Positions 7,744-30,128 of a stretch of DNA of 64,000 nt are shown here, in pieces; within the stretch, counting starts at the first letter, position 1, and each line of letters begins with the position of its first letter. The DNA is taken from NCBI GenBank assembly GCA_018261905.1, contig JAGTRU010000015.1, forward strand, positions 35,915-99,914. The letters run 5' to 3'. Below the pieces are notes generated by a model that did not search any database, was not told where the DNA came from, and worked only from the letters and a program-made list of their open reading frames with translations. The DNA is from Pseudomonadota bacterium. Lineage in GTDB: Bacteria > Pseudomonadota > Gammaproteobacteria > Burkholderiales > Rhodocyclaceae. A program made the position numbers and the translations under genes.

Positions 7744-7761
7744 CCCGCTGGCGGGCCGGGC

Positions 7762-9261
7762 TTATTCCGGCGGCAGGCTGCTGCCGGCTGACGTCATCGC
7801 TCGGCTTAACTGCGGGCGGGTGCTGGCCGAGAAGCGCAGGTTGCACTCGGCGATGGCGCTGGCGATTTGCGCTAGTTTGAGCCCGCTTTCGCCTTCCTGG
7901 CGGGCTAGGGCGGCTTCCTCGAGAGCCATGGCCGAAGCCAGTCCGCTGGCGTGCTGCGCCTGGGCAACCTTGAGGCCGGCTTCGTTGAGCTGCCAGCGGA
8001 GCTGGGCTAGTTCGAGCTGGGTTTCGGCATCGCGCAGGGCGGCCTGGTTGCGTCGCCGGTTCTCGTCGATGTCGCGCCGTAACTGTTCCTGACGCAGGCG
8101 GGCGGTTTCCTGTTGGGCCAGTTTTTCGGCAATCCGCGAATCGCGCAGGGCGCCATCGTAAAGGTTGAGATTGAGCTGCAGCCCGAGGTAGGTCTCGCGC
8201 CGGTGGAGATCGCGTCCGGCCTGTTCCAGCGTCTCGTTGTCGCGCCCGATCGCGGTGTATTGTCCGAGCAGGCTGAGGCTCGGCAGACGGCTGGCCTGCT
8301 CGGCCCGGACGGCTTCGGCGGCGGCCAGCAGATTGGCCGTCTCGCGTTGGTATTCGAGGCCGTCGTCGGCCCATTGTGTGGCTGCCGCGAGGTCTTCTGC
8401 CGGATCCGCCGGGAAGTTCGGTAGCAGCGTCGCGGCGTTCGCCTCGTCGAGATCGGCACCGAGCGCCGCGGCGTATTCGAGCAGGCGGGTGTTGCGTTCA
8501 TTGGCGCGCATCCTGGCCTCGCCGCGTTGTTCGGCGAGGCGAAGCCGCTCGGTCTGCAGGGCAAGTTGCGACAGACGCTTTTCGGCGAATTGGCTGGCGG
8601 CGATCTGCGCCCGCTTCTCCGCGACGCCTGCCCGCTGTTCGGCCAGTTCGTCGAGTAAGGTGGCTTGGCGGAGACGGAGATAGGCCAGCGTCACCCGATA
8701 GGCGGTGTCACGTTGTTTGACGGTTTGCTCGATCGTGCTGGCGGCTAGCTGGTGGGCGGATTGTTGCAGCCGCGCCGTGTCGCGCCCACCGTTATAGAGA
8801 TCGTAGCTGAGGCGCACCGCCGGGGCGATCTGGTAACGCGGCACGGTTTTCTTGATATTGGCGTCGAGGGTTACCGGCGGTTGCCCGGGGATCGTTGATG
8901 GAACCGTGACCGTGCTGTTGATACCGAGGTAGCTGTCGTAGTTTTCCGTGTAATCGATATTGGTCAGGACGTCTATGCTCGGCCGGAAACGGGCTTGCGC
9001 CTGGCTCTGGCGGGCATCGGCCTGGACCGTGGCGAGGCGGGCGCTGCGGTTGGCCAGATGATTGTTCAGGGCGTAGAGGATCGCTTCGTCCAGGCTGCGC
9101 GGGTAGCCGGCAGCGCTGGGCGGGGCGGCCGGCGGCGCCAGCGACAGGCTGGTGGCGACCCGCAGTCGGCTCTCGGCGGCCGCAGGCGGCGCTTCGGCGT
9201 GGCCGGGGTTGGCCTGGGCGGCGGCAAGGAGGCAGAGGCCGGCGAACAAGGGTTTATTCAT
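7762..9261 (-). CDS. TolC-family outer membrane efflux protein
   Basis: This 499-residue protein has a signal peptide (to about residue 23) and an outer membrane efflux domain with a repeated architecture. It includes SLDEAILYALNNHLANRSARL near residue 55 and a matching second half, long helical heptad stretches (LAEQRAGVAEKRAQIAASQ) and strand segments rich in aromatic residues. It would form the outer membrane channel and periplasmic tunnel. Its start overlaps the permease stop by 8 bases, making it the last gene of the leftward export operon. Confidence 0.92.
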   Translation of the reverse strand: MNKPLFAGLCLLAAAQANPGHAEAPPAAAESRLRVATSLSLAPPAAPPSAAGYPRSLDEAILYALNNHLANRSARLATVQADARQSQAQARFRPSIDVLTNIDYTENYDSYLGINSTVTVPSTIPGQPPVTLDANIKKTVPRYQIAPAVRLSYDLYNGGRDTARLQQSAHQLAASTIEQTVKQRDTAYRVTLAYLRLRQATLLDELAEQRAGVAEKRAQIAASQFAEKRLSQLALQTERLRLAEQRGEARMRANERNTRLLEYAAALGADLDEANAATLLPNFPADPAEDLAAATQWADDGLEYQRETANLLAAAEAVRAEQASRLPSLSLLGQYTAIGRDNETLEQAGRDLHRRETYLGLQLNLNLYDGALRDSRIAEKLAQQETARLRQEQLRRDIDENRRRNQAALRDAETQLELAQLRWQLNEAGLKVAQAQHASGLASAMALEEAALARQEGESGLKLAQIASAIAECNLRFSASTRPQLSRAMTSAGSSLPPE

Positions 9262-10525
9262 AGCGCAGGGCTTCCACTGGACGCAATTTGGCGGCCCGAT
9301 AGGCCGGGTAGACTCCCGAAATCAGGCCGACGACGAGCGAAACACAAAATCCGATGACGATGAAGGAAAACTCCGGGACCAGCGGGTAATGGGTCCAGGC
9401 GGTAATGGCGACGCTGCTGACGGCGCCCAGCAGCAGCCCGAAAACGCCGCCGAGCAGGCTGATCAGTGTCGCCTCGATGAGGAACTGGCTCATGATTTCG
9501 CCTTCGCCGCCGCCGATTGCCTTGCGCAGCCCGATTTCGCGGGTCCGTTCGATGACCGAGGTGCTCATGATGTTGAGGATGCCGAGGCCGGCAACCAGTA
9601 GCGAAACGGTGGCGGCGACGAGGCCGATGGTGGAGACGATGCCGAGAATGACATCGGCGTTGGCGACGTATTGCTGCATGGTCTCGATGCGGTATTTGAA
9701 AGCGTCCTGGTGGCGCCGCTTGAGGAAGGCGACGATCTGTTCGGCCGCCGCCCTGGCCATTCCCGGGCTGACTGCTTCGCCCTGGATCATGGTGATATCT
9801 TCGGTCCCGAGCATGGTCTGCAGGCGGTTGTAGGGGATCAGGATGCGGCCGTTGGGATCCTGCTGGCCACCGGTCGAATTGATGCTGGCGAGGAAGGAAC
9901 GGTCCTTGTAGGCGAGGACGCCGATAATCTCGAACTTGTCGTCGGCGATGCGGAGTTCCTTGCCAACCGGGTTTTCATCGGCGGCGAAGAGGTCGTTGCG
10001 GACCTGTTCGCCGATCACGGCGACGGCGCGGCGCCGTTCGATGTCCTGGGGATTGAAGCCGCGGCCGACGACCAGCGCATCGTTGTTGATCTCGAGATAG
10101 GCACTGCCGACCCCTTCGACCCCGGCCGAACTGTAGCGGTTGCCGCGGGTCGCGAAGAGCGGGGCGTAGCGGCCGGGCCACAGGATGGGCGTGAATTTGG
10201 CCAGGGCCGGGCAACTGGCCGAGGCTTTCAGGGCGTTGATGTCGTCGTTGCTGATGCCGGTGCCGCCGCGGATGACGCGGCGCGGGTCGTCGACCTTGTA
10301 ATTGCGGTGCACCCAGACCGACTTCAGGCCGAAAGTCTGCAATTCGCTGAAAATGACTTCCTTGCCGCTGCGGTTGACCGTCGCGATCAGGATGACGGCG
10401 GCGATGCCGATGGCGATGCCGGTGGCGCTCAGGGCGGTGCGCAGCTTGTGGTCGGCGAGGCCGAGCAGGGCCTGGCCGAGCAGGTCGAGCCAGAACTGCC
10501 AGAGGGTGTTGCTGGCCGGCTTCAT
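9254..10525 (-). CDS. MacB/FtsX-type ABC transporter permease
   Basis: This 423-residue inner membrane protein has the MacB-like plan: one N-terminal membrane helix (about residues 28-47, ATGIAIGIAAVILIA), a large periplasmic core, then three C-terminal helices with the FtsX motif (ERTREIGLRKAIGGGEGEI before them, then VYPAYRAAKLRPVEALRYE at the end). Unlike MacB itself, the ATPase is a separate gene. It overlaps the ATPase gene as ATGA. It probably works by mechanotransmission with TolC and the fusion protein to export the cluster product. Confidence 0.93.
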   Translation of the reverse strand: MKPASNTLWQFWLDLLGQALLGLADHKLRTALSATGIAIGIAAVILIATVNRSGKEVIFSELQTFGLKSVWVHRNYKVDDPRRVIRGGTGISNDDINALKASASCPALAKFTPILWPGRYAPLFATRGNRYSSAGVEGVGSAYLEINNDALVVGRGFNPQDIERRRAVAVIGEQVRNDLFAADENPVGKELRIADDKFEIIGVLAYKDRSFLASINSTGGQQDPNGRILIPYNRLQTMLGTEDITMIQGEAVSPGMARAAAEQIVAFLKRRHQDAFKYRIETMQQYVANADVILGIVSTIGLVAATVSLLVAGLGILNIMSTSVIERTREIGLRKAIGGGEGEIMSQFLIEATLISLLGGVFGLLLGAVSSVAITAWTHYPLVPEFSFIVIGFCVSLVVGLISGVYPAYRAAKLRPVEALRYE

Positions 10526-11196
10526 TTCCGCAGATCCTCGGCGATCACGCCGTCGCGCAGGCGGATGATGCGTTGGGCGTAGGCGGCGATGTCGTGTTCA
10601 TGGGTGACCATGATGATCAGCTTGCCCTGGGCGTGGAGTTCGGAAAAGATATTCATGATTTCCTCTCCGGCATGCGAATCGAGGCTGCCGGTGGGTTCGT
10701 CGGCAATGATCACGTCGGGGTCGTTGACCAGGGCCCGGGCAATCGCCACCCGTTGCTGCTGGCCGCCCGACAGGCGGGCCGGGGTGTGGCTGCAGCGGTC
10801 GCCGAGGCCGACCCGGTGCAGCGCCTGGCGAGCCCGTTGTTGGCGTTCGGCCAGTGGCAGCCGCCCGTAAATCATCGGCAACTCGACGTTGCGCAAGGCG
10901 CTGAGGCGGGGAATCAGATTGAACTGCTGAAAGACAAAGCCGAATTTGCGATTGCGGATCTTGGCTTGTTCGCTGTTGTTTACGGTATCGACGCGCCGCC
11001 GATCGAGTTCGTAGGTGCCTTTGTCCAGGGTGTCGAGGCAGCCGAGGATATTCATCAGCGTCGATTTTCCCGAGCCCGATGGTCCCATGATGGAAACGAA
11101 TTCGCCGCTCGCAATATGCAGCGAAATGCCGCGCAGCACATGGATCGGCTCGGCGCCGGTGGTGTAGTACTTCTCGGCGCCCTCGAGGCGGATCAT
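10522..11196 (-). CDS. MacB/LolD-type ABC transporter ATP-binding protein
   Basis: This 224-residue ATPase has Walker [10 protein letters not shown] near residue 40, signature [15 protein letters not shown] near residue 142, and Walker [13 protein letters not shown] near residue 160. It is closest to the LolD/MacB/FtsE class. I chose the ATG at 11196, which overlaps the stop of the fusion protein gene as ATGA; a longer upstream frame is shadow of that gene. Confidence 0.94.
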
Positions 11197-12281
11197 GGAC
11201 GGGCCCCGTTGTCGGCTAGGTCGACGGCATCGCCCTCGCGCAGCGCTTTGCCTTCGAGCCGGGCGACGGGCTGCCCGGCCCCGAGGCCGCTGCGGATTTC
11301 GACGAAATGGTCGCCGAACAGGCCGCAATTGATCGGCTGGCTACGCAGGCGTCCGTTGTCGACCAGCCAGACATAGTCCTTGCCGTCCCGGTTGTGCACC
11401 GCTTCGATCGGCAGGCGCAGGGTCGACGCCCGGGAACTGGTCTGGATATTCACATCGACCTGCTGGTTGGGCAGGACTTTCAGTCCGGCCGAACGGGCGC
11501 TGATCCAGACCGCCAGATAATTGGTGTTGCCTTCCTTCTGAATGGCCGGATCGATGCGCAGGATCTGCTCGGCGACCGCCGGCGAACCGTTCACCGACAC
11601 CGCGACCGGCAGGTCGGCGTGGATCAGCCCGGCATCGGCCTGGTCGACCTTGGCGAGGATTTCCAGTGGGCCGGCGGCGCGCAGGCTCATCAGCACTTTG
11701 CCGGCGGCGACGAACTGTCCCTGGCGGACATCGACGGCCGAGATGGTGGCGGCGATCGGGGTGCGCACGGTGTAGTGTTCGAGCTGACTCCGGGCGGCGC
11801 TCAACTCGGCGTTGGCCCGCTCGAGCCGGGCCTGATCGACCCGGAGCTGCGTTTCGGCATTGCGCACCGTGATCTCGGCTTCGCCGCCGGCCTGCCAGAC
11901 GGCGCGCAAGCCGTGCAGGGTGGTTTCGTGCAGCGTCAGTTCCTCGCTGACCATGCGCCGGCTGGCCGCGGCACTGTTCACCCGGGCCACGCTATCGTCG
12001 CTGGCGATGCCAACCAGCAGGGCATTCTTGGCGACCGGGTCGCCGACGGCGACGGCGACCCGGTCGGCGATGCCGGAAACCTGGGCGATCACCGGCACGT
12101 CGTTGGGGCCTTTGGCGGTGCCGGTGATGCGGATGTACGAATCGACCGGGCCGGTATCGACGGCGACCACGCTGACGACCGGGAGTTTGGCGCCATCCCT
12201 GACGACAACGATGAGGCCGGCAGCGACCAGGAGGAGGCCGGTGGCGAACAGCCAGAAACGGTTTTTTTTCATCGATACCAT
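11193..12281 (-). CDS. MacA/HlyD-type periplasmic membrane fusion protein
   Basis: This 362-residue protein has a single N-terminal membrane anchor (FWLFATGLLLVAAGLIVVV, residues 8-26). Then come a barrel-sandwich lipoyl half (VIAQVSGIADRVAVAVGDPV), a coiled-coil hairpin of about 60 residues, the second lipoyl half (TPIAATISAVDVRQGQFVAAG) and beta-barrel domains. It bridges the permease to TolC. An alternative start is the Met at residue 4. It lies 70 bases downstream of the GNAT gene, in the same direction. Confidence 0.92.
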   Translation of the reverse strand: MVSMKKNRFWLFATGLLLVAAGLIVVVRDGAKLPVVSVVAVDTGPVDSYIRITGTAKGPNDVPVIAQVSGIADRVAVAVGDPVAKNALLVGIASDDSVARVNSAAASRRMVSEELTLHETTLHGLRAVWQAGGEAEITVRNAETQLRVDQARLERANAELSAARSQLEHYTVRTPIAATISAVDVRQGQFVAAGKVLMSLRAAGPLEILAKVDQADAGLIHADLPVAVSVNGSPAVAEQILRIDPAIQKEGNTNYLAVWISARSAGLKVLPNQQVDVNIQTSSRASTLRLPIEAVHNRDGKDYVWLVDNGRLRSQPINCGLFGDHFVEIRSGLGAGQPVARLEGKALREGDAVDLADNGARP

Positions 12282-12351
12282 CCGTGGATAACAGGCTTAG
12301 TGACAATTGAAGTGTTGGTCTGCCGCGGCATGAACCCGGTCTGGGGTTTGG

Positions 12352-12960
12352 TCATTTGTCGAGATCCTTGACCAGGCGGGCGAATTCGAAGTTTTCGCCG
12401 GCCAGATCGGTGATCTGCAAGCTTCGCTCAATCCGGAAACCAAGTTTGCGGCGCAGGCCGATCGCCGTCGCGTTGTCGCTTTCGGCTTCGCAGACGAGGC
12501 GCCGACAGCCTTCCCGGCGGGCATTTTGTTCGGCCACGGCGAACAGACGCCGGCCCAGGCCGCGGCCGCGAAACTCGGGATAGAGGGCGCTGTTGCTGGC
12601 GTAGTATTCGCCGCTCTCGATCGCGCCGAGCAGGGGTTCGATTTTCGTCAACTGGCGGTAATGGCGGAGCAGACCGAGCCCCATGTAGCGCGCCAGGAGC
12701 AGCCCGAAGACGGTCCGGCCGGCCGTTTTGGCGGCATGGTTGTAAGTCAGCGTCATGCCGGCCAGGCGACCGTCAAGTTCGATGAATTGCGTGTGCTCGT
12801 AGCTGAAGAAATGTTGGCGGTGGGGAAACAGTCGTTCCATCAGCCGGCCGACCTCCGTTCCGTATACCGCCGGCAGGAAGCGTGGGACGCTGATCAGCAG
12901 CAGGCGGGAAAAATCGGCGGCATCTTCCGGCCGCCCGGGGCGGATGACGATAGTCTCCAT
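12352..12960 (-). CDS. GNAT family N-acyltransferase of the biosynthetic cluster
   Basis: This 202-residue protein has the GNAT acetyl/acyl-CoA motif A as YPEFRGRGLGRRLFAVAEQ near residues 140-158, followed by CEAESDNATAIGLRRKLGF. The ATG at 12960 overlaps the megaenzyme stop as TAATG, so the two are likely translationally coupled. That coupling suggests it modifies or releases the megaenzyme product, for example by acyl transfer to an amine. This is inference from position; the acyl donor is unknown. Confidence 0.85.
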   Translation of the reverse strand: METIVIRPGRPEDAADFSRLLLISVPRFLPAVYGTEVGRLMERLFPHRQHFFSYEHTQFIELDGRLAGMTLTYNHAAKTAGRTVFGLLLARYMGLGLLRHYRQLTKIEPLLGAIESGEYYASNSALYPEFRGRGLGRRLFAVAEQNARREGCRRLVCEAESDNATAIGLRRKLGFRIERSLQITDLAGENFEFARLVKDLDK

Positions 12961-15900
12961 TAGCTCCTCCTGCCCGCCGTGGCGGTCGCCAGCAATTGTT
13001 CGATGCTGGCCGTCGGCATCGCCAGCAAGGCCCGCAACAGCCCTTCGATATCGGCCAGCAGGGCGGCGATGGTGGCTTCCGTGAACCCCTGGCGAGCGTA
13101 GGTCACCCTGATTTCGAGGCTGTCGCCGATATCGACCGAGAAAAGCAACGGATAGTGGCTCAGCTCGTCGAAGTCGGTACTCCAGACCGGCAGGGTTTCG
13201 GAAACCAGTAGCAGGGACGGGTCGATCGGAAAATTCTGGATGGCGACGACGCTCTCGAACAGCGGCTGCCCCGCCGCCAGGCCGCTGCATTCCTGGATCA
13301 GGCGCTGCGGCGTGTGTTCGAAGGCCAGCAGTTCGGTGCACTGGGCCTGCAGGGCCTGGAGCCAGTCGGTGCAGCGGCCGGCGCTATCGATCCGGACGCG
13401 GATCGGCAGGTCGTTGGTAAACATCCCGACCATGTTTTCGATACCCGAGAGCTCCGGCGGTCGCGACGAGAAGGTGGCGCCGAACACGACCTCACGCTGG
13501 CCGCTGTAATGGCCGAGCAAAAGCGCCCAGACGCCCTGCATCAGCGTGCTCGGCGTAAAGCCGTGCTGCCTGGCCAGGTGCCCCAGGCCGCCGCTCGTCT
13601 CGTTGTCCAGTTCCCATGTCGCGCGGCCCGAGCCCTGGCGGTCGGGCAGGGGTTGCCGACTGGCCAGCCGGGTCGGACCGCTGAGTCCGGCCAGACAGCG
13701 TTGCCAGTAGGCCCGGGCCGGGGCGGTGGGCTGTTTGGCTAGCCAGCCCAGATAGTCGCAAAAGGGGCGGGTCGGGGGATATTCGGCGGGGCGTTGGGTG
13801 GTCAGTGCGCCATAGAGAGCGAGAAATTCCTGCAGTAGCAGGGCCAGGGACCAGCCATCGAAAAAGGCATGGTGATAGGTCCACACAAATTGGTAGAGGT
13901 CTGCGCTGTAGCGGATCAGCAGCAGGCGCGACAGCGGCGGCCGGGTCAGCTCGAAAGGGTGCTGACGTTCGGCCAGGCGATAGTGTTCGAGGCGCCCGGC
14001 CCGCTCTTCCTCGGGAATCTCCCGCCAGTCTTCATGCCGCAAGGGGAGCGGCAGTCCGCCATAGACGGCTTGCTGGGTCAGGGCGCCGGATATCTCGACG
14101 GCGGCGCTGCGCAGCACCGGATGGTGCTCGAAGAGCAGGCCGAGGGCCCGTTCCAGGGCCGGGCAGTCGAGTCCGCCAGCCAAGGTGCAGGAGAATTGTT
14201 CGGCGTAGATGCCGGCGCCGGGAGCGGCAACACTTTGCTCCAGCATGTCACGCTGGGCATCGGTCAGCGGGTAGATGTCTTGTAATTCCCAGCCGGCACT
14301 GGCTGCGGCCGCGGTCAATCGGTCGACCTGCCCGGCGTCGAGCGCGGCCAGCGGGAAATCGCCGCGGGTGGCGCCGGCCGGCGCCCGCCTGCAATGCGCC
14401 AGCAGGCGATGGACCTGATCCAGACAGTGGTCGGCCAGTTGGACGACGGTCGTCGTCGGCAGACGGTCCGGGTCGTATTGCCAGATGAGTTCCAGGCCAT
14501 CGTCGCGCCAGTCGGCCGTGATATCGATGGCCGATGTTGTGGGCCCCGTCAGCTCGAGGGAGCGCAGCAGTGTGGCTGGCGTAGCCGGCGGTTCGGTGTA
14601 ATGGAAAGCGATCGGCAACTCCGGGGGCCGAGCCCTCGCCGCGTTGTTGGGCAGGGCATAGCCGAGGCCGCCGGCGGGCACGGCGCGACATTGTTCCTTG
14701 ACCGCTTTGAGCGCCGCACCGTCGTCTTCCGCCGGGCGCTCCAGACAGAGCGGGTAGGGGCTGTGCAGCCAGCCGACCGTGCGCGAGATGTCGAGTTCCG
14801 GGAAAGGATTGTGGCGTCCGTCATGGTCGATGAGCAGGCTCAGGCGATCGACTTCCAGCCAGCCGCAGAGAGTGCGTAGCAGCGCGGTCAGCAGCAGTTC
14901 CTCGGGACGCAGCCGGTAGGCTTTGCGGGTCGCCTTGAGCAGGTTCTCGGTGGCCGCGGCATCGAGGTGGCGCGTCAGGCGCTGGCGCTTCGTGGCGCCG
15001 GCCGGAGCGAGCCGCGGCAGGCGCGGTGCGGCGCTTTCCTGGGTTGGCCAAAAGCCGGCCGCGTCGGCCGTGGCGCCAGGTTCGGGCAGCTCGGCGAGGC
15101 GCTCGGCCCACTGCCGGTAGGCGCTGGTTTTAGCCGGCAGTGTAATGGCCTGGCCGGCCAGCAACTGACGGCAGGCGGTATCCAGATCTTCACCCAGGAG
15201 GCGCCAGGAGGCGGCGTCCAGGACCAGGCGATGGCCGGCCAGCAGCAGTTGTTCGCGGCCCTCGCCGAGTATGAAATGGAGCGCCTTGAGGCGCGGGCCG
15301 TGCGCCGGGTCGAGGCTGGCGCACAAGCGGTGGCGCTCTCTTTCGAGGCTGGCGGCCTGGGCCGCGGCATCAAGTTGGCTGAGGTCGATGGTCGGCAACT
15401 CGAGCGTCGCCGTTTCGACGGGGGCGTGGCTGGCCGGTTGGTTGTCGGCGAAGCGCAGGCGCAAGGCGTCGTGGTGCTCAAGCAGGGCGCGGCAGGCGCT
15501 GGCCAACAAGGCACTGGGCAGCGCCTGGGTGAGTTCGAATCGCAGGGCTGGATGGGACGGGACGTCGCCCCCGGCGGTTGCGGCCAGATAGCTGCGCTGG
15601 GCCGGTGTCAATGGGCAGGGGCCGGTGAGTGGGCCTTGCTCGGCGACAATCGCCGAGGTGAGGCGGGCGACCGCCGCCAGTTCGGCAATGGTGGTGCACT
15701 GGAAAATGTCCTTGGCCGCCAGGTGGATGCCGGACTGGGCGGCGCGGGAAATGATCTGGATGGCGAGAATCGAGTCGCCGCCGAGACTTAAAAAATTGTC
15801 GGAGACGCCGATTTGGTCGACGCCGAGCGCTTCCTTGAATATTTCCACCAGGCGCCGTTCGGTGGCGTTGGCCGCTTCGCTGCGTTCGGGGGCGGCCCGG

Positions 15901-17675: not shown

Positions 17676-18110
17676 GCAATAGCTCTCCAACGCGATCGGT
17701 TCCTCGCTCCGCTCGGTTGGCGGGGAGGGTTGAAACTCTGCGTTGGGGCTTGGGTCTGGCTACTTGCCGGCTCGTGCGGAGAAGACTGGGTAAAACCTAG
17801 AACCCCCATCAAATTTCCGCTTTAAGCTCTTGTAATGCATATGGTCTTGTGTGATTATAACACCGGTATATCCAATAAGAATAATTGCGGCAGGTGGTTG
17901 AAAGGTTTTTTCTGCAGTCGTGACCGTGCAGGGGCGGATGCAGATGTTCGAAATTCGCGGTTTTTCGGCAAATCGCAGCCCGTCGGCTGTTTTGTCATGC
18001 GGATTCGGCCTTTCGGCGCTACCGGCCGCTCGCTGGCTCCCCCAATATTTTTTGCGTTCGCTGCGTGCAGCTTTGGTGCTCATCGTTTTTTCTAGGGGGA
18101 AGTAACTGTC
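17676..18110. other. Divergent intergenic region of the biosynthetic cluster
   Basis: This 435-base gap separates the megaenzyme (left) from the ACP gene (right) and should hold both promoters and any shared operator. The stretch 17815-17900 is AT-rich, in contrast to its surroundings, and is the likeliest promoter zone. I could not assign specific -35/-10 boxes. A GGGGGAAG ribosome site precedes the ACP start. Confidence 0.5.
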
Positions 18111-18446
18111 ATGTCTACATATAGCAAAGAAGAAGTCATTAGCCGTATCGAGAAGGTCCTGCGCTCAACGCTCGGGCTCGGTGCCGATGTCGAATTGCGT
18201 CCGGATGCCAACCTCCTCACCGAAATCGGCCTCGATTCGATTGAGGCTTTCGAGGCGGTAACGACCCTGCACGAGATTCTTGGGGTGCGCATTCCTGACG
18301 ACCTAGACCCGAAAATGGTGGCCAACATCAACGGCATGGCCGATTACATTTTCGACAAGTACGGCCCGGACGTCGTCGAAAAATTCATGACCACCGATAT
18401 CGAGCGCGCGATCGCCGAAATGCGGGCCGACGAGTCGCTGGACTAA
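18111..18446 (+). CDS. Acyl carrier protein
   Basis: This 111-residue ACP has the phosphopantetheine site IGLDSIEAFEAV near residue 43. It is longer than the usual 78-residue FAS ACP; an acidic C-terminal tail (TDIERAIAEMRADESLD) extends it. As first gene of the rightward operon, it is the likely carrier for the ketosynthase pair and a possible recipient from the FAAL. A stem-loop follows it (18469-18490), which could raise its expression relative to downstream genes. Confidence 0.93.
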   Translation: MSTYSKEEVISRIEKVLRSTLGLGADVELRPDANLLTEIGLDSIEAFEAVTTLHEILGVRIPDDLDPKMVANINGMADYIFDKYGPDVVEKFMTTDIERAIAEMRADESLD

Positions 18447-18468
18447 ACAAGCGCTGCTGAATTTTCAG

Positions 18469-18490
18469 GAAGCCGTCAGCCGACGGCTTC
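18469..18490 (+). terminator. Intercistronic stem-loop between ACP and dehydratase genes
   Basis: A perfect 9-bp stem GAAGCCGTC/GACGGCTTC with loop AGCC lies 23 bases after the ACP stop. There is no T-run, so it is more likely an attenuator or RNA-processing/stability element than a full terminator. Confidence 0.5.
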
Positions 18491-18519
18491 GGCCACAATT
18501 TCTGCTTGCGACTCGAAAA

Positions 18520-19014
18520 ATGCTATTGGCATACGAAGATATTCTTCAACTCATTCCACATCGGCCGCCCTTTCTGTTCGTCAAATCAGCCGAACTGATC
18601 GGTCCGCGCGAAATTCACGGCATCTGCGTCTGGGCTGCCGACAATCCCATTTTTGCCGGGCACTTTCCGCAACTGGCGATCGTTCCCGGGGTCTTGCTGG
18701 TCGAGGCGGCGGCGCAACTGGCCGGCGTTCATATTGTGCAAGCCGTTCGCAGCCCGGGCCGCGCCCAGGTGCTGGCCAAGGGCTACGAGATGGAGGATCC
18801 GGTCGGCGTGCTGACCCTGATCCGCAAGGCAAGCATCCACAAGCCGGTATTTCCGGGCGATGAGGTGTTCTATCGGGTCAGCCTTGATGCCCCGGTCGGA
18901 CCGATGATCAATGTCCGTTGCGAGGCGCTGGATGCGAGGCGCCAGCAGAAAGTTTTCAAATGCGAACTGGGTGTCGCGGTGGCCGAGCGCGCCCGCCTGC
19001 AGTCCACTATCTGA
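18520..19014 (+). CDS. FabZ/FabA-like 3-hydroxyacyl-ACP dehydratase
   Basis: This 164-residue hot-dog-fold protein has the FabZ N-terminus (LIPHRPPFLFV). Its active-site helix contains the catalytic His in FAGHFPQLAIVPG and the acid in LLVEAAAQLAG, both intact. It would dehydrate 3-hydroxyacyl-ACP to the trans-2-enoyl form in the chain-building cycle of this cluster. It is distinct from a housekeeping fabZ because it is embedded between the cluster ACP and ketosynthase genes. Confidence 0.9.
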   Translation: MLLAYEDILQLIPHRPPFLFVKSAELIGPREIHGICVWAADNPIFAGHFPQLAIVPGVLLVEAAAQLAGVHIVQAVRSPGRAQVLAKGYEMEDPVGVLTLIRKASIHKPVFPGDEVFYRVSLDAPVGPMINVRCEALDARRQQKVFKCELGVAVAERARLQSTI

Positions 19015-19023
19015 GGGGAAATC

Positions 19024-20256
19024 ATGTCCGAAAAACGAGTCGTCGTAACCGGGATGGGGGCGGTTTCATGTTTTGGTGCCGGTGTCGAGCGCCTCTGGCA
19101 AGGCCTGCTCGACAAGAAAAGCGGCATCCGCCCGGTGTCCTTCCTGGCGCCCGGCAGTTATCGTTCGACGCTGGGGGCGGAGGTGCCCTGGACAGCGCTG
19201 GCGGAACATGAAGATTGCGGTGGCGAACTGCAGACCCCGGAAGAAGCGACCCGCCTGGCCCTGATCGCCGCCAACGAGGCGATCGCCCAGGCCGGACTGG
19301 CCGGCCCCGCCATCGAGGCGGCCGGGTGTGTGCTCGGCACGCTGTGTTCAAGCTCGCGCGTCACTGCGGAATACATGCGGCAGTTCGCTCTCTCGGAGAT
19401 TGCCAGGGCGGATACGACGGATGCCGATGTGGCCATCGTTTCGCACCAGCTCAATCATGTCGTCGGGCGTTACCGGCTGCACGGTCCGGTCTCCATGGTG
19501 TCGACGGCCTGCTCGTCGTCGACCGACGCCATCGGCTACGCCGCCGATTTTATCCGGAGCGGTGACGCCGAGATCATGCTGTGCGGCGGGGCCGACATCA
19601 TTTCCGAGTTTGCCCATGCCGGGTTCTGTTCCGTCTTTTCGATCACGCGCGATGTCGCCCGGCCGTTCGACAAGTCGCGCACCGGCTTCTTCATCGGCGA
19701 AGGGGCTGGCATGCTCGTCCTCGAAAGCCTCGAACACGCCAGGGCGCGGCGGGCCAACATCTATGCCGAAGTGCTCGGCTATGGTCTGAGCAATGCCGCC
19801 TTTCACCTCACGGCAACCTCGGAAGACGGTAGCGGCGAGGCCCTGGCCGTCCGCCGGGCGCTGACCGAGGGCGGCATCGCTCCCGAGCAGGTTTCCTATC
19901 TGAATGCCCATGGCACGGCGACGCATCATAACGATTTGACCGAGGTCCAGGTTATTCGCTCGGTATTCGGCGCCGCGCCGAAGATTGCCATTTCATCGAT
20001 CAAGGCGAATATCGGTCATTGCATGGGGGCGGCCGGGGCGCTCGAGGCTATTGCCACCATCAAATGCATCGAGCATGGCTTCATCCCGCCGACCTTGAAC
20101 AGCAGCGGCGACGTCGATGAGGCACTGAATATCGTCATTGGCGACGGCCTGCACCTGCCGGTTAACTACGCGCTCTCCGAGTCTTTCGGCTTTGCCGGCG
20201 CCTGTTCGGCACTGCTCCTCGGGGCGCCCCACCTGATCGATCAGGCCTCGGTCTGA
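19024..20256 (+). CDS. Beta-ketoacyl-ACP synthase (KAS II-like, catalytic KS-alpha)
   Basis: This 410-residue condensing enzyme keeps the full catalytic triad: Cys in VSTACSSSTDA near residue 163, His in NAHGTATHHND near 300, and His in IKANIGHCMGAAGALE near 333. The C-terminal loop reads SFGFAG rather than the common SFGFGG. It extends the acyl chain with malonyl-ACP. The next gene encodes an inactive-looking homologue, so the two probably form a KS-alpha/KS-beta heterodimer. RBS GAGGGGAAA precedes the ATG. Confidence 0.93.
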   Translation: MSEKRVVVTGMGAVSCFGAGVERLWQGLLDKKSGIRPVSFLAPGSYRSTLGAEVPWTALAEHEDCGGELQTPEEATRLALIAANEAIAQAGLAGPAIEAAGCVLGTLCSSSRVTAEYMRQFALSEIARADTTDADVAIVSHQLNHVVGRYRLHGPVSMVSTACSSSTDAIGYAADFIRSGDAEIMLCGGADIISEFAHAGFCSVFSITRDVARPFDKSRTGFFIGEGAGMLVLESLEHARARRANIYAEVLGYGLSNAAFHLTATSEDGSGEALAVRRALTEGGIAPEQVSYLNAHGTATHHNDLTEVQVIRSVFGAAPKIAISSIKANIGHCMGAAGALEAIATIKCIEHGFIPPTLNSSGDVDEALNIVIGDGLHLPVNYALSESFGFAGACSALLLGAPHLIDQASV

Positions 20257-20283
20257 ATCACCAACCCAGCGAGTTAACCCACC

Positions 20284-21465
20284 ATGACCATTTCGCAAAG
20301 CCGGCCTGCCTTCCTCACCGGGATTGGCGCCATCACCCCTTTTGCCAACGGCTGGAGCCCTACCTTTCAGGCGGCCAGCGCCGGCCCGATCCGCTATGCG
20401 CCGTGGCCTGCCGATCTCGAACCACCGACGGCGAATGCGGCGCTTGGGCTGGTCAAGGACTATCCCAAGGAGAAGTATTTCACCGATCGCCAATTGCGCG
20501 TCATGGATAAGGCGATGACCCTGGCGTCGGTCGCCACCGGCTTTGCCTTTGAAGACGCCAAGATCGACGAAGCCTATCGCACCGAGGCGGGGGACGAAAT
20601 CGGCACCATCTTTACCTCGATGCGGGGCGAAGTCCCGTCGATCTATCGCTATTGTTCGCCGCTGATCGTCAGCAATGGCAAGTCCTTGCCCAATCCGGCG
20701 CATTTCCCGATGATCGCCCGCAATGTCGCCTGCGGTCAGGTCGCCTTGCGTTTTGGCCTGCGCGGCTGGAGCACGATGATCGCCTCGGGCGAATTGAGCA
20801 CCATGCATGCCCTGGGGCGCGCCGTCAGCCTGGTCGAAAGCGGCAAGGCGCCGATGATCGTGGTCGCCGCCTACGAAACGTTGTCGAAAATTTCCCTGCA
20901 TCACGCCCGGGTGTTCTGGCGCAAACACGGCATTTACGACCAATTGTTCCAGGATCCGCAATCGAATGCCGATGCGCTGATCGAAGGCGCCTGTGTTTTT
21001 GTCATCGAAAGCGAGGACAGCGCGCTGCGCCGTGGCGTGACGCCCTACGCGCGCTTCGGACGGGTCACCCAGGGGCAATTGCAGCAGCCGACGGCGCCGG
21101 CCTTCCGGGACATCGCCCGGCGCCATGCGGCGAAAAACGAGACGGATCGGATCGCCGCCAGTTTTCTCGTTTCCAGTCGCCAGAACTCTCCGGCCGAGAA
21201 CGAGCAGGCGATGCTCGCGGCACTCACCGAAAATGCCTCGCCGCTTAGCGAAATCCGCACCCGGCCGATCTTTGGCGATGGCGGTTCGCAGACGCCGATG
21301 TTCCAGGTCGCCTGTGCTGCGCAGATGCTCAAGGACGGCAAGCTGGCCGCCGGCTTGCTGGCTCCCGGCACGGCGCCGGCAGATGGCGTGCCGCCGTCCG
21401 GCGCTACCGTGACCCAGGTTGGCCTGCTCGGCGGCTACGGCTTGCTCTCGCTGGGGCGCGCCTGA
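20284..21465 (+). CDS. Ketosynthase-like protein lacking the catalytic triad (chain-length-factor-like)
   Basis: This 393-residue protein aligns with ketosynthases by its start (FLTGIGAITPFANGW), WSTMIASGELSTMHALGRA where the nucleophile loop lies, and a GLLGGYGLLSL tail. The nucleophile Cys position is Ile (STMIASG against STACSSS in the neighbour). The first His motif (NAHGT) is replaced by a SSRQNSPAEN region. The second (IGH) is replaced by GGSQTPMF. It therefore cannot condense alone and is best read as a KS-beta/chain-length-factor partner of the upstream ketosynthase. The assignment rests on motif loss plus adjacency. Confidence 0.8.
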   Translation: MTISQSRPAFLTGIGAITPFANGWSPTFQAASAGPIRYAPWPADLEPPTANAALGLVKDYPKEKYFTDRQLRVMDKAMTLASVATGFAFEDAKIDEAYRTEAGDEIGTIFTSMRGEVPSIYRYCSPLIVSNGKSLPNPAHFPMIARNVACGQVALRFGLRGWSTMIASGELSTMHALGRAVSLVESGKAPMIVVAAYETLSKISLHHARVFWRKHGIYDQLFQDPQSNADALIEGACVFVIESEDSALRRGVTPYARFGRVTQGQLQQPTAPAFRDIARRHAAKNETDRIAASFLVSSRQNSPAENEQAMLAALTENASPLSEIRTRPIFGDGGSQTPMFQVACAAQMLKDGKLAAGLLAPGTAPADGVPPSGATVTQVGLLGGYGLLSLGRA

Positions 21466-21568
21466 GCAATTCTTGTCCGGAAGTTTGTCCGCCGCCGGCC
21501 GAGCGGCTCCTGGCCATTCGCTGGCGGGGCGGCCGAATGACCGAGATTGCATATCCGAGGAAATTTCA

Positions 21569-22318
21569 ATGAAAAAAGCAGCCCTGATTACCGGCGCCAG
21601 CCGGGGTATCGGCCGAGCCATTGCCGGCGTGCTGGCAGAGAGCCTGCCGGTGGTGATCAATTATCGCAACGACGAATCGGCGGCGCTCGCCGTGCAGGCC
21701 GAGATTCGGGAAAAGGGGGGCGAAGCCCTCGTCATCCGGGCCGATGTCGCAGATTACGAACAGGTCCGCCGGATGTTCGACGAAATTCGGGCCGCCGATT
21801 ACTGGGTACATACCCTGGTCAATAACGCCGGCATCATCCGGGATCAGTTCGCCATCATGATGGGACTCGATGCCTGGCACGCCGTGATCAACTGCAACCT
21901 GAACGGCGCCTTCTACTGTGTCAGGGAGTCCGTGCAGACCATGATGGCCCGGCGGGCCGGCAATATCATCAATATCTCCTCGATCAGCGGTCTGCACGGC
22001 CAGGTCGGGCAGAGCAACTATGCCGCATCGAAGGCCGCATTGACCGGTTTGACCAAATCGCTGGCCAAGGAGCTGGGGCGTTTCAACGTGCGGGTCAATT
22101 GCGTCGCGCCGGGTTTCATCGAAACCGACATGGGGGCCGAACTGCTGAGCAACGAAAAAATGGCCAAATTGCTCGAACTGGCCCGCCAGGAACTCCTTCC
22201 CCTGCGCCGTTGGGGCAAGCCGGCCGATATTGCTGGCGTCGTCCAGTTCCTGGTGTCCAGCCAGGCGGCCTACATGACCGGGCAGGTGCTGGAAGTTGAT
22301 GGCGGGCTCTCCCTTTGA
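21569..22318 (+). CDS. FabG-like 3-oxoacyl-ACP reductase (SDR)
   Basis: This 249-residue short-chain dehydrogenase has the NADP fingerprint TGASRGIGRAI at residues 8-18, NNAG near residue 87, the Ser of the triad in NISSISG and YAASK near 152. It would reduce 3-ketoacyl-ACP made by the ketosynthase pair. I chose ATG 21569 with GAGGAAA upstream. About 100 bases precede it after the chain-length-factor-like gene. Its stop overlaps the next ATG as TGATG. Confidence 0.93.
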   Translation: MKKAALITGASRGIGRAIAGVLAESLPVVINYRNDESAALAVQAEIREKGGEALVIRADVADYEQVRRMFDEIRAADYWVHTLVNNAGIIRDQFAIMMGLDAWHAVINCNLNGAFYCVRESVQTMMARRAGNIINISSISGLHGQVGQSNYAASKAALTGLTKSLAKELGRFNVRVNCVAPGFIETDMGAELLSNEKMAKLLELARQELLPLRRWGKPADIAGVVQFLVSSQAAYMTGQVLEVDGGLSL

Positions 22319-24417
22319 TGGCCCATCTCGATCCCGCGCCACGCCTGCCCGAGGCCGATGGGCCGGGCGTCAACATCCTGCGCCGCTGTTTTTCCCCGAT
22401 CTCGATCAATGGTCTCGAACTCCGCAACCGGCTGCTCATGAGTTCGATGCACATGAATTTTGAAGGGGCCGATCAATATGAGCGCTTTGCCCGCTTTTAC
22501 CGCCTGCGCGCGGCCCATGGCCCGGCCTTGATGGTCACCGCCGGGTGCAGCCCGGATTATTTCGGCCAGGTCACTAGGGATGCTTTTCGTCTCGATAGCG
22601 ACGATCTGCTCGCCGAGCACCGGAAAATCGTTGCTGCCGTGCATGCCGCGGGCGACTCTAAACTCGTCCTGCAACTACTGCATTTCGGCCGGGAAGCATT
22701 TCACGGCAAACTGGTGGCGCCTTCCCCCTTGCGTCTCGAAGGCAACATCTTCACCCCCTACGAACTGAGCCATGAACAGATTCTCGCCACCATCGACGCC
22801 TACGGGGCGGCGGCGGCGCGGGCCGTGGCGGCCGGCTACGATGCCATCGAGCTGCTTTTCTCTCAGGGTTTCCTGATCCACCAGTTCCTGTCGGCCCATA
22901 CCAACCGGCGGACCGACCAATGGGGCGGCCCGTTCGCGCAGCGCCTGCGCTTCGCGACGGCGGTCGCGGCGGCCGTGCGCGGCGCGGTCGGGCCGGCTTT
23001 TCCGGTGATTTTCCGGATTCCCTGCCTCGACCTGGTTGCCGGCGGACTGAGTTTTGCCGAATCGCTGCAACTGGTCGATGCCCTGCAGGCCTATCAGATC
23101 GACCTCCTCAATATCAGTATCGGTTGGCACGAGTCGAACGTCCCGACCATCGCCAACGTCGTCCCGCCGGCCGGCTTCGCCGCCGTCGCCGCCCGGGTCA
23201 AGGCGGCCTTCCCGCATCTGCTGACCTGCGTCAGCAACCGGATCAACGATTTGCGCCATGCCGAAGAGCTGCTGATCGAAGGCGTCGCCGATATGGTGGC
23301 GATGGGCCGTCCTTTCCTGGCTGACCGGGCGATCGTCGCCAAATCGGCGGCCGGGCGTTTCGACGAAATCAATTACTGCATCGCTTGCAACCAGGATTGC
23401 CTGGATCAGGTTTTTGTCGGCAAAGTCGTCGGTTGCGCCGTCAATCCGGAATGCAGCAGCGCAACGGAAGGCGATCCGCTGCCGGCATTGGCCGGCGAAC
23501 CGGCCGTTGCCGTTGTCGGCGGCGGCCTTTCCGGCATGGCCTGCGCCCTGGTCTTGGCCCGGCGCGGGGCAAAAGTGACCCTCTTCGAAAGCGCTTGCCA
23601 GCTCGGCGGCCAACTCTTGCTGGCCGCCGCCATCCCCGGTAAGGCGGAGTTCATGCGGACTGTCCGTTATTACGCCGGACAGTTGCGCGCCAACGGCGTC
23701 GCGGTCCATCTCGATCACGAATTCGGCGAATCGGATCTGGGCCATGGAAATTGGCGGCATGTCATCCTCGCCAGCGGTACGCAACCGACGCCCTGGTCGC
23801 CGCCGAGCGGCGCGACGCAACGCATCGTCGGCTACCGCGAATTGCTCCACGACAATCTGCCGGTCGAATATCCGGTGCTCATTGTCGGGGGCGGCGGCGT
23901 TGCCTGCGATGCCGCCAAACTGCTGCTTTCCCGGCCCGACCGGGTGCGCGCCAGCGAGGACTACCTGGCCTATCACCAGGCCGAAAACCTGGTCGGAGCG
24001 CTGGGGGCGATGCCGGCGCCGACTGGCGATCGGTCGATCACCCTGCTGCAGCGGTCGACCAAGAAATTCGCCTACAAGATCGGCAACACGACGCGCTGGA
24101 TCGTCGTCGATGAATTGCAGCGGCATGGCGTCAAGTTCAAGCGCGGTGCGACGATCAAGGCCTGTCACGGAGATGCGGTGGTGATTAGCCTGGCCGATGG
24201 CAGCGAACAGAGCCTGCCGGCCAGGACCATCATCGTCGCCGTCGGCCAGCAGCCGGCGAGCGAGCCGCTGCAGGCGGCGCTGGCCAAGGCCAAAATCGAC
24301 TATTCGACCATCGGCGCGGCGCGCCCCGAACTTGGCAAGACAGGGGGGCGGGTAGTCGCCAGTATCTCGGCGTCGATTCGCAGCGGTTACGAGACCGGGC
24401 TCGCCTTGCGCCTCTGA
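22318..24417 (+). CDS. 2,4-dienoyl-CoA reductase-like flavoenzyme (OYE + 4Fe-4S + FAD/NAD domains)
   Basis: This 699-residue protein has the FadH plan. An FMN-binding old-yellow-enzyme barrel covers residues 20-340 (FSPISINGLELRNRLLMSS, SAHTNRRTDQWGG). A 4Fe-4S cysteine cluster follows near residue 350 (CIACNQDC then a spaced Cys in VGCAVNPEC). Then come FAD- and NAD(P)-binding halves (VAVVGGGLSGMACAL near 395, VLIVGGGGVACDAAKLL near 520). In beta-oxidation such enzymes reduce dienoyl-CoA; here, at the end of a synthesis operon, it may reduce a dienoyl or enoyl carrier intermediate. ATG 22318 overlaps the SDR stop. Confidence 0.88.
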   Translation: MAHLDPAPRLPEADGPGVNILRRCFSPISINGLELRNRLLMSSMHMNFEGADQYERFARFYRLRAAHGPALMVTAGCSPDYFGQVTRDAFRLDSDDLLAEHRKIVAAVHAAGDSKLVLQLLHFGREAFHGKLVAPSPLRLEGNIFTPYELSHEQILATIDAYGAAAARAVAAGYDAIELLFSQGFLIHQFLSAHTNRRTDQWGGPFAQRLRFATAVAAAVRGAVGPAFPVIFRIPCLDLVAGGLSFAESLQLVDALQAYQIDLLNISIGWHESNVPTIANVVPPAGFAAVAARVKAAFPHLLTCVSNRINDLRHAEELLIEGVADMVAMGRPFLADRAIVAKSAAGRFDEINYCIACNQDCLDQVFVGKVVGCAVNPECSSATEGDPLPALAGEPAVAVVGGGLSGMACALVLARRGAKVTLFESACQLGGQLLLAAAIPGKAEFMRTVRYYAGQLRANGVAVHLDHEFGESDLGHGNWRHVILASGTQPTPWSPPSGATQRIVGYRELLHDNLPVEYPVLIVGGGGVACDAAKLLLSRPDRVRASEDYLAYHQAENLVGALGAMPAPTGDRSITLLQRSTKKFAYKIGNTTRWIVVDELQRHGVKFKRGATIKACHGDAVVISLADGSEQSLPARTIIVAVGQQPASEPLQAALAKAKIDYSTIGAARPELGKTGGRVVASISASIRSGYETGLALRL

Positions 24418-24418
24418 C

Positions 24419-24451
24419 TCCCGCCGGGTTGCGCCAAGTCGTTCGGCGGGA
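24419..24451. terminator. Stem-loop between convergent operons
   Basis: An 8-bp perfect stem TCCCGCCG/CGGCGGGA with a 17-base loop sits right after the flavoenzyme stop and before the end of the convergent buf operon. There is no T-run; it may act as a weak bidirectional terminator. Confidence 0.4.
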
Positions 24452-24472
24452 AAGTCCGGGCGACAGTCCGGA

Positions 24473-24943
24473 CTAGCGCTGCTTGCCTCTTTGGGTCAGC
24501 CACCGGCCCAGCCCGGCGGCCAGCGAGTAGCGTCCCGTACCGTGAAAGACCAGCACCAGTAGCAGGCAGCCCCAGAGCACATGGTCCTGCCGGCCGAGGT
24601 CGGAAATGTCGGGGAAGGAAATGGCGGCCATCAGGTTGACCACGAACAGCCCGGCCGCCGCGAAACGTCCGCCCAGGCCGAGGACGAGCAGGATCGGCAG
24701 CGTAAATTCACCGGCAGCCCCCATGACGGCGGCCAAATGCGGCGGCAGCAGTGGCACCTGGTACACGTAGTCGAACAGATCAAGTGTCGCCGACCAGTCG
24801 GTAAGTTTCAGCCAGCCGGCGCGGAAGAAAATCTCGCCGAGATAGAGGCGCAGACCGAGATCGAAGAGCGGTGTTAACCAGTGGTCGAACAGCTCGCTGA
24901 GTGCCTTAGTCCAGCGACACAATGTCTGCAGATGTGCATTCAT
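24473..24943 (-). CDS. DoxX-family membrane protein of the bufferin operon (BufD)
   Basis: This 156-residue four-helix membrane protein has the DoxX motif LRLYLGEIFFRAGWLKLTD near residue 30, AAGEFTLPILLVLGL near 75 and a C-terminal helix pair. In bufferin (DUF2282-DUF692-DUF2063) operons a DoxX protein is the usual fourth member; its role is not well defined and may be redox or membrane related. ATG 24943 is 10 bases after the bufC stop. Confidence 0.88.
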   Translation of the reverse strand: MNAHLQTLCRWTKALSELFDHWLTPLFDLGLRLYLGEIFFRAGWLKLTDWSATLDLFDYVYQVPLLPPHLAAVMGAAGEFTLPILLVLGLGGRFAAAGLFVVNLMAAISFPDISDLGRQDHVLWGCLLLVLVFHGTGRYSLAAGLGRWLTQRGKQR

Positions 24944-24953
24944 GGTTTTCCCC

Positions 24954-25718
24954 TCAGTAGGCAAGGCGCAGCAGGCCGTTGCCGATGAAACGCTGCAAGG
25001 CGCCTTGCAGATCGAAATCCTCATCGTCGCTGATGGCCTGTTCGACAGCCTCGCCCAGGGTATTTGCCGCCTGCAGGGCGGCGAGTAGGGCCTGTTCGCC
25101 GGCGCCGAGGCGTTCGACCGCAATGCCGGCTGGACGGCGCTGGATCAAGGCGTTCTCGGGTTGCCTGAAATCGACTGCGAAGTCCCCGCCGTTGTCCGGC
25201 TGATTGACTTCCCAGATGCGCACGACCGGCCAGCGCGAAGCCAGGAGGGCGTGCGCCGGATCGAGCCGGAAGCGCAATTCGCCCCAGCTTTCCGGCGGCG
25301 CGGTGGCGAGCCGGGAAAGGTCCTGTGCCGGTGCATCCTCTGCGCCGTGGACTTGCAGGATGAGCCATTCCAGGCGGGCGACATCGGGCAGGTAGGGCAG
25401 GCTGGCGGCCGCTGCGTAGTCAGCGAGAAGAGCGGCGAACTGATCGCCATAGGCATTGAGGTCGCCGCTCCGGCTCGGATGGGACTCGGCGTAGCGCCGG
25501 CAGGCGGCGGCGAGAAATTCGCCGCCGACGATGTTTTCGCTGACCGGGTAGGTGGCTTGCACGGCGGCGGCCAGGTTGGCCAGCACGCTGCGCCGGTAGG
25601 CGGCGATGCCCTGCCTGGCGCGTTCCGGATCGCCGGCGCAATGGGCGAGCAGCTTGGCAGCATCGCCGGCGAACATGGCGGCGGCAAAGTCGGTCTGCAA
25701 TTCACGCAGCGCGGACAT
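24954..25718 (-). CDS. bufC: DUF2063 bufferin maturation partner (BufC)
   Basis: This 254-residue protein begins with the DUF2063/HvfC N-terminal domain (LRELQTDFAAAMFAGD, GIAAYRRSVLANLAAAVQATYPV) and a C-terminal DUF2063-like half with PYLPDVARLEWL. Family members pair with DUF692 MNIO enzymes and are thought to recruit or position the precursor peptide. It overlaps bufB by 17 bases, supporting coupled expression. Confidence 0.9.
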   Translation of the reverse strand: MSALRELQTDFAAAMFAGDAAKLLAHCAGDPERARQGIAAYRRSVLANLAAAVQATYPVSENIVGGEFLAAACRRYAESHPSRSGDLNAYGDQFAALLADYAAAASLPYLPDVARLEWLILQVHGAEDAPAQDLSRLATAPPESWGELRFRLDPAHALLASRWPVVRIWEVNQPDNGGDFAVDFRQPENALIQRRPAGIAVERLGAGEQALLAALQAANTLGEAVEQAISDDEDFDLQGALQRFIGNGLLRLAY

Positions 25719-26562: not shown

Positions 26563-26579
26563 GTCGGCGACTTTGCCGC

Positions 26580-26858: not shown

Positions 26859-26885
26859 TTTGTATCTCCGGTAAGGGTTGGCGAT

Positions 26886-26928: not shown

Positions 26929-26937
26929 CTCCTGCTG

Positions 26938-30126: not shown

Positions 30127-30128
30127 GT

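What the first reader, a model, noticed from the sequence alone, without database searches (positions are those of the whole stretch)
7762..24417. Unrecognised divergent biosynthetic cluster joining a type II FAS/PKS-like set, a FAAL megaenzyme and its own exporter
The sequence shows two tightly packed divergent operons with all parts of a pathway: ACP, dehydratase, KS, inactive KS partner, ketoreductase and dienoyl reductase on one side; FAAL-carrier-C-type domains, GNAT and tripartite exporter on the other. Known aryl polyene and highly reducing type II PKS clusters share the KS/CLF/KR/DH kit, but I do not know one with a FAAL-PCP-E*-C enzyme, GNAT and MacAB-TolC-type exporter. Inference: a secreted N- or O-acyl metabolite, perhaps partly unsaturated.
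Basis: partly seen in the sequence, partly recalled or inferred. Interest (0 to 1): 0.85.

Follow-up and report, generated by a model that had tools for sequence, protein, structure and literature searches.

The report
Rare type II acyl-amide gene cluster
A Dechloromonas-type bacterium carries a 21.7-kilobase block of genes, absent from the same spot in six relatives, in which two back-to-back gene sets are predicted to build a partly unsaturated fatty chain, likely couple it to an amine and pump it out; its reductase lacks a residue that the known relative uses for catalysis, and close relatives of its key genes are very rare in the databases searched.

Summary
Window 7762-24417 has two tight divergent operons. 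Plus strand: ACP, FabZ-like dehydratase, ketosynthase, KS-like partner with Glu for Cys, ketoreductase, FadH-like flavoenzyme. Minus strand: FAAL-PCP-E*-C, GNAT, split MacAB-TolC-type exporter. They lie in a 21.7-kb insertion that six same-genus genomes lack at this site; the genus holds a Dechloromonas MAG. The KS partner has 24 other family members among 5.77 billion proteins searched. A 63% relative of the FAAL enzyme and a 66% relative of the KS partner share a longest-contig length (102,723 bases), so both operons very probably occur together in a second lineage.

New here: in the flavoenzyme, E. coli FadH Glu164 and Tyr166 are Gln and Phe, as in 67 of 110 classifiable listed hits; six such relatives share contig lengths with KS-partner relatives. 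The E domain is dead by motif, as if a lipopeptide synthetase had lost its amino-acid module. Best reading: a highly reducing type II PKS makes an acyl chain that FAAL loads and the C domain passes to a soluble amine. Product, amine and chain hand-over are inferred; no thioesterase is in the cluster. New variant of a known kind.

The parts
18111..18446 (+). acyl carrier protein with C-terminal extension (GLDSIE)
   Evidence: PF00550, 31.7 bits; sequence
18520..19014 (+). FabZ/FabA-like hot-dog dehydratase, His and Glu of GHFP..PGVLLVEA present
   Evidence: PF07977, 42.3 bits; FabZ model 78.6 bits, below its cut-off of 113; sequence, motif meaning recalled
19024..20256 (+). ketosynthase with Cys-His-His (TACSSS, HGTATHHND, NIGHCMGAAG)
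   Evidence: PF00109/PF02801; FabF-like, models below cut-off; sequence, motif meaning recalled
20284..21465 (+). KS-like partner (chain-length-factor position), nucleophile Cys replaced by Glu
   Evidence: model pLDDT 86.7 with KS fold
21569..22318 (+). SDR ketoreductase (TGASRGIG, NAG, S-Y-K); start at 21569 preferred to 21419
   Evidence: PF13561; one FabG subfamily model passed, 246.1 bits over 222; TIGR01830 277.4 bits, below its 297.75; start
22315..24417 (+). FadH/OYE-like FMN-4Fe4S-FAD flavoenzyme; FadH Glu164 to Gln and Tyr166 to Phe, His252 and four cluster Cys kept
12960..17675 (-). FAAL - PCP (GGDSI) - degenerate E domain (HRLVLDA) - C domain (HHAFFDGWS); no A domain after the C domain, no thioesterase
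12352..12960 (-). GNAT acyltransferase, start codon overlaps the FAAL stop codon by 1 bp
   Evidence: PF00583 (scanned in the longer frame 12352-13341)
11193..12281 (-). periplasmic adaptor (HlyD/RND_mfp)
   Evidence: PF13437; TIGR01730 138.7 bits over its cut-off of 94.9
10522..11196 (-). ABC ATPase; ATG at 11196 preferred to the longer frame
   Evidence: PF00005; start
9254..10525 (-). MacB-type permease (MacB_PCD plus FtsX)
   Evidence: MacB equivalog model 170.5 bits, below its 966
7762..9261 (-). TolC-like outer membrane factor
   Evidence: PF02321, 2 stretches
7744..29480 (.). insertion relative to six same-genus genomes; homology ends about 7735 (yaeQ) and resumes about 29482
17676..18110 (.). 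435-bp divergent intergenic region between the two operons

Best explanation
A 21.7-kb stretch that is absent from this site in six relatives carries two divergent operons that likely form one export pathway: a highly reducing type II polyketide synthase is predicted to build a partly unsaturated acyl chain, a FAAL-PCP-E*-C enzyme would activate and load that chain, its C domain would pass it to a soluble amine, and a MacAB-TolC-like pump would export the product. Predicted steps: KS with its acidic CLF-like partner extends malonyl units on the cluster's ACP (malonyl loading by the host's enzyme is assumed); KR and DH turn each new keto group into a double bond; the FadH-like flavoenzyme acts on conjugated diene thioesters, so the chain does not become a full polyene. 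The chain would reach the FAAL as a free acid, which the FAAL adenylates and loads on the PCP; since no thioesterase lies in the cluster, release from the ACP is the weakest link. The E domain is read as a fossil: the enzyme looks like a PvdL-type FAAL-T-(C-A-T)-E-C synthetase from which the amino-acid module was lost, leaving the C domain at the end of the protein with no A-PCP partner, hence an untethered acceptor. The GNAT would modify the acceptor or the product. Shown: gene content, residues, insertion, rarity and contig-length figures. Inferred: every reaction, the product, and evolution from a PvdL-like enzyme.
For: Intact motifs in ACP, DH, KS, KR, PCP and terminal C. KS partner without Cys directly after the KS gene, KS fold. 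Closest solved relative of the PCP-E-C part is PvdL, 572.8 bits (E* alone 202.8 bits; for the C domain alone McyB is first at 255.7 and PvdL next at 232.3). Flavoenzyme: 465.7 bits to E. coli FadH 1ps9. Both operons are in one insertion and very probably on one contig of a second lineage at 63-66% identity. Overlapping or closely spaced genes within each operon.
Against: No thioesterase, no amine-supplying gene and no amino-acid A domain in the cluster. FAAL could use ordinary cellular fatty acids. No FAAL hit shares a contig length with the other KS-partner relatives in the part of the list shown (120 of 1230). No flavoenzyme hit of the 102,723-base contig was in the 120 listed of 1875. Co-occurrence rests on equal contig lengths; that contig could not be opened. 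NCBIfam FAAL, FabF and FabZ models score below their own cut-offs. The short promoter scan gave no support.
Confidence: 0.55

Rival explanations
1. Two independent cassettes travel in one island: the FAAL-C-GNAT-exporter operon would acylate an amine with ordinary cellular fatty acids, and the type II operon would make another compound released by host enzymes.
For: No thioesterase links the two. In six cases a KS-partner relative shares a longest-contig length with a flavoenzyme relative, and none of those lengths is in the listed FAAL hits.
Against: Shared divergent intergenic region, absence of both operons from the site in six relatives and 63-66% relatives with one contig length. The FAAL list shows only 120 of 1230 hits, so absence there is weak.
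Confidence: 0.25
2. The FAAL-PCP-E*-C protein would feed its acyl chain to the PKS/NRPS megasynthase elsewhere in the genome (contig C46), as a lipid starter.
For: The only other Condensation match at E <= 0.001 in the genome lies in the C46 megasynthase, which has an A domain, PCPs and a thioesterase.
Against: C46 has its own acyltransferase, beta-branching genes and thioesterase; no docking evidence; the export genes sit with the FAAL.
Confidence: 0.07
3. It is an ordinary member of a characterised type II family (aryl polyene, or cispentacin/coronafacic acid type).
For: Shared KS, partner, DH, KR and ACP kit; weak AmcB, AmcE and AmcF matches.
Against: These Amc matches are far under cut-off (20.5 of 80, 35.3 of 140, 228.7 of 325). 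[quoted passage not shown]
Confidence: 0.05

Closest known systems
Highly reducing type II PKS, ishigamide type (Iga11-Iga12 with Iga13 KR and Iga16 DH; PMC8358021, passages)
   Same: KS plus a KS-like partner with dedicated ACP, KR and DH
   Different: KS partner is only weakly similar to the ishigamide CLF chain (6kxd_B, 38.6 bits), has Glu/Asp for Cys in its 24 aligned rows, and comes with a FadH-like flavoenzyme and a FAAL-C release enzyme
E. [quoted passage not shown]
   Same: OYE-FMN domain, 4Fe-4S cysteines, FAD domain, His252
   Different: Glu164 to Gln and Tyr166 to Phe; Tyr166 is one of the catalytic dyad (PMC12691678, introduction). The bilirubin reductase BilR clade is likewise marked by residues at this site (PMC10769871, passages)
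PvdL, pyoverdine synthetase (9lcq, 9lcp, 9lco)
   Same: best solved match of the PCP-E-C part; the FAAL start of PvdL and MacAB-type export in pyoverdine systems are recalled
   Different: no C-A-T module between FAAL-T and E (PvdL order recalled), E domain dead by motif, no downstream modules
MacAB-TolC type efflux
   Same: adaptor, MacB_PCD/FtsX permease, ATPase, OEP
   Different: ATPase and permease are separate genes (fusion in MacB recalled)
Cispentacin KS-CYF type II PKS (PMC10698177, passages)
   Same: KS, partner without active-site motifs, ACP, hot-dog enzyme
   Different: Amc models for ACP, hot-dog enzyme and KS are under cut-off, and no Amc model is in the rows shown for the other proteins scanned except a weak AmcF match of the KS partner

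Membership tests
highly reducing type II PKS | active KS beside a Cys-less KS-like partner | tested here: met
   KS Cys-His-His by sequence; partner Glu at the Cys position, Asp/Glu in 24 of 24 aligned rows
highly reducing type II PKS | dedicated ACP, KR and DH in the operon | tested here: met
highly reducing type II PKS | iterative formation of an unsaturated chain | not testable with these tools
   needs in vitro reconstitution
highly reducing type II PKS | KS and partner nest with reference HR sequences in a tree | not tested
   reference set not available; PDB similarity alone is equivocal
aryl polyene cluster | half-size CLF and a second KS in the cluster (PMC8358021) | tested here: not met
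   partner 393 aa against KS 410 aa; one KS in the two operons
cispentacin/coronafacic acid cluster | Amc ACP, hot-dog enzyme and KS over model cut-offs | tested here: not met
   20.5 of 80, 35.3 of 140, 228.7 of 325 bits
FadH 2,4-dienoyl-CoA reductase | OYE-FMN, 4Fe-4S and FAD domains | tested here: met
FadH 2,4-dienoyl-CoA reductase | Tyr166-His252 catalytic dyad | tested here: not met
   His kept, Tyr is Phe; of 120 listed hits 67 are Q-F, 42 E-Y, 1 Q-Y, 10 unclassified
fatty acyl-AMP ligase (FAAL) | FAAL sequence family | tested here: inconclusive
   best NCBIfam FAAL model 414.3 of 775 bits; best solved AMP-ligase matches are 7r7f, 463.4 bits, and 3kxw, 371.2 bits (that these are FAALs is recalled)
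fatty acyl-AMP ligase (FAAL) | FAAL-specific insertion and acyl-AMP to PCP transfer | not tested
   insertion not modelled; transfer needs an assay
active epimerisation domain | HHxxxDG motif | tested here: not met
   HRLVLDA; HRLVLDT in P0028, HRLACDA in P0029
MacAB-TolC type exporter | adaptor, MacB_PCD/FtsX permease, ATPase and outer membrane factor | tested here: met
   Pfam matches; adaptor model over cut-off, MacB equivalog model under; ATPase on its own gene

The most novel reading that the evidence does not exclude
The Gln-Gly-Phe flavoenzymes are a new enzyme type built into type II polyketide synthases: having lost both the acid and the tyrosine next to the flavin (FadH Glu164 and Tyr166), they reduce a conjugated dienoyl-ACP with protonation at another carbon and leave a 3-enoyl chain, so that repeated cycles place isolated or skipped double bonds in the chain without any desaturase; the acidic KS partner and the FAAL-E*-C enzyme are the chain-length and release parts of this machine.
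Probability: 0.15. Interest if true: 0.8.

Novelty: new variant of a known kind. Interest (0 to 1): 0.55.

Why it matters
If the pathway reading is right, it joins a rare branch of highly reducing type II PKS to a FAAL-started condensation enzyme without an amino-acid module, a release route that I did not meet in the listings and passages seen. The Gln-Phe flavoenzyme group is a directly testable case of how a beta-oxidation reductase is rebuilt for synthesis, and could be a source of chains with controlled double-bond positions. The dead E domain may be a readable fossil of how NRPS assembly lines lose modules.

Tried and rejected
Genome scan with the KS-partner alignment: 8 stretches matched a pattern, none a relative; viral contigs likewise, 13 stretches, none. 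The order sample found the flavoenzyme at E <= 1e-150 only in the window's genome, 1 of 399. Plasmid records: 4 matches at 25-27% identity.

GNAT model without alignment: pLDDT 33.7, useless. Anti-phage library: one marginal match, 18.7 bits, for the flavoenzyme, not meaningful. Promoter scan: 1 site where shuffles give a mean of 2.8, so no support. Direct repeats at the insertion ends: longest 12 bp in the 300-400 bp compared, not convincing.

Considered and dropped: Accumulibacter as the host genus (82% at best to an Accumulibacter locus among the rows listed); a Dechloromonas MAG is in the genus (100% over 5501 bp for G023). Also dropped: that the E domain is active; that the cluster is aryl polyene or cispentacin type.

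Recalled, not from a call: motif meanings for KS, KR, DH, ACP and HHxxxDG; that Tu et al. 2008 linked different proton donors of FadH to different products beyond its title (title seen only), and hence the 3-enoyl idea; PvdL domain order and pyoverdine exporter type; the bufferin name. Other FAAL clusters thought of as comparisons were not tested.

Full report
WHAT IS THERE. Gene finding and Pfam confirm two divergent operons between 7762 and 24417. Plus strand: ACP 18111-18446, FabA/FabZ-like dehydratase 18520-19014, ketosynthase 19024-20256, KS-like partner 20284-21465, SDR ketoreductase 21569-22318, FadH/OYE-like flavoenzyme 22315-24417. Minus strand: FAAL-PCP-E*-C 12960-17675, GNAT 12352-12960, adaptor 11193-12281, ATPase 10522-11196, MacB-type permease 9254-10525, OEP 7762-9261. 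All twelve frames are open; with these starts, neighbours within an operon lie -8 to +103 bp apart.

WHERE IT SITS. The window's genome has 4,918,088 bases in 68 contigs. A 5,501-bp segment of 'Dechloromonas sp. isolate new MAG-194' (L067) is 100% identical to G023, which is in the same genus; an Accumulibacter locus reaches 82% at best in the rows listed. Of 29 short yaeQ loci from relatives, 13 reach a homologue of window gene 29404-30291 beside yaeQ, and none has a cluster gene (recount). I fetched longer stretches for six (L057-L062): the four best yaeQ matches and two more, three of the six having already shown the neighbour gene. In all six, yaeQ and that homologue lie 98, 611, 1248, 1276, 1467 and 2024 bp apart, against 21.7 kb here, and none of the twelve cluster genes has a tblastn hit at 1e-15 in these stretches (12.5-19.9 kb each). 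Nucleotide similarity ends at about 7735 and resumes at about 29482.

HOW RARE. The KS partner gave 26 hits at E <= 0.001 among 5.77 billion proteins (7,996 candidates scored): one is very close to the window's own (98%), 24 are family members (40-66%), one is a distant KS. At family level it is in 1 of 100 genomes searched, own included; 94 others have only ordinary KS matches at 20-31% identity and 5 have none at E <= 0.001. It is in 1 of 398 genomes of the phylum at E <= 1e-60, own included, and a two-pattern scan of the GTDB collection found none (near-own records may be left out there). The FAAL enzyme has two close full-length relatives, 97% and 63%; the other 118 listed hits are at 27-45% identity (120 of 1230 listed). 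It is in 1 of 60 genus genomes at E <= 1e-120, own included.

DO THE OPERONS BELONG TOGETHER. P0003 (KS partner, 66%) and P0029 (FAAL enzyme, 63%) both have a longest contig of 102,723 bases and the same two sources. I read this as one contig but could not open it, and no flavoenzyme hit of that length is among the 120 of 1875 listed. For the flavoenzyme, six of 24 family KS-partner proteins have the same longest-contig length as a flavoenzyme hit (32619, 23380, 67379, 16717, 6561, 24850; 15 of the 24 are on contigs of 6.5 kb or more); random log-uniform lengths gave a mean of 0.09 matches and at most 2 in 2,000 draws. None of those six lengths is in the listed FAAL hits, 120 of 1230. So the KS-partner/flavoenzyme core is wider than the FAAL combination, as far as the lists show.

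FAAL-PCP-E*-C. The PCP keeps GGDSI, the terminal C keeps HHAFFDGWS, and the E domain reads HRLVLDAAS; the 97% relative reads HRLVLDTAS and the 63% relative HRLACDAAS. The PCP-E-C part fits PvdL best (572.8 bits); the C domain alone fits McyB slightly better. From this I infer recombination between the two T domains of a FAAL-T-C-A-T-E-C enzyme; nothing dates or proves it.

HOW IT LIKELY WORKS. KS and partner extend a malonyl-derived chain on the ACP; KR and DH make a 2-enoyl and, in the next cycle, a 2,4-dienoyl chain; the flavoenzyme reduces it; FAAL activates the finished acid and loads the PCP; the C domain passes it to an amine that no gene here tethers; GNAT modifies; the pump exports. 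All of these steps are inferred. The gap is release from the ACP. One flavoenzyme relative, P0163 (967 aa), has a thioesterase domain by precomputed Pfam, so related systems may solve release differently.

LITERATURE. Searches listed no paper that I recognised as describing this gene set. Only listings were seen, apart from passages of PMC8358021, PMC10132072, PMC10698177 and PMC10769871, and passages plus one section of PMC12691678. No MIBiG or antiSMASH comparison was possible, so 'not described' is limited to those searches.

VERDICT. A real and rare cluster; new variant of a known kind (highly reducing type II PKS plus FAAL/NRPS-type release). Interest lies mostly in the flavoenzyme group and the fossil E domain.

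Noticed in passing
window 24473-27797 (-): DoxX, DUF2063 and MbnB/TglH/ChrH genes with a sigma-70 family gene next to them (27183-27797): looks like a bufferin-type operon (name recalled), inside the same insertion.
   Followed up: partly
window genome contig C46, about 14.7-67.4 kb (L153, L154, L066, L063, L064): A large PKS/NRPS cluster with two giant proteins of about 6,900 and 6,500 aa, a separate acyltransferase, HMG-CoA synthase-like and enoyl-CoA hydratase genes, an FkbM methyltransferase, an A domain and a thioesterase: probably a trans-AT PKS in a Dechloromonas-type genome.
   Followed up: partly
protein P0163: A flavoenzyme of the Gln-Phe type, 967 aa, with a thioesterase domain by precomputed Pfam.
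   Followed up: no
protein P0193: A Gln-Phe flavoenzyme at 50% identity named from Chromobacterium violaceum, 75 member sequences; its neighbourhood was not opened.
   Followed up: no
window 44700-47960: A stretch of lower G+C (0.50-0.55) in which my ORF filter kept no gene.
   Followed up: no
L057-L062: The site between yaeQ and the gene 29404 homologue varies from about 0.1 to 2 kb among six relatives, so it may be a variable spot of the genus.
   Followed up: partly
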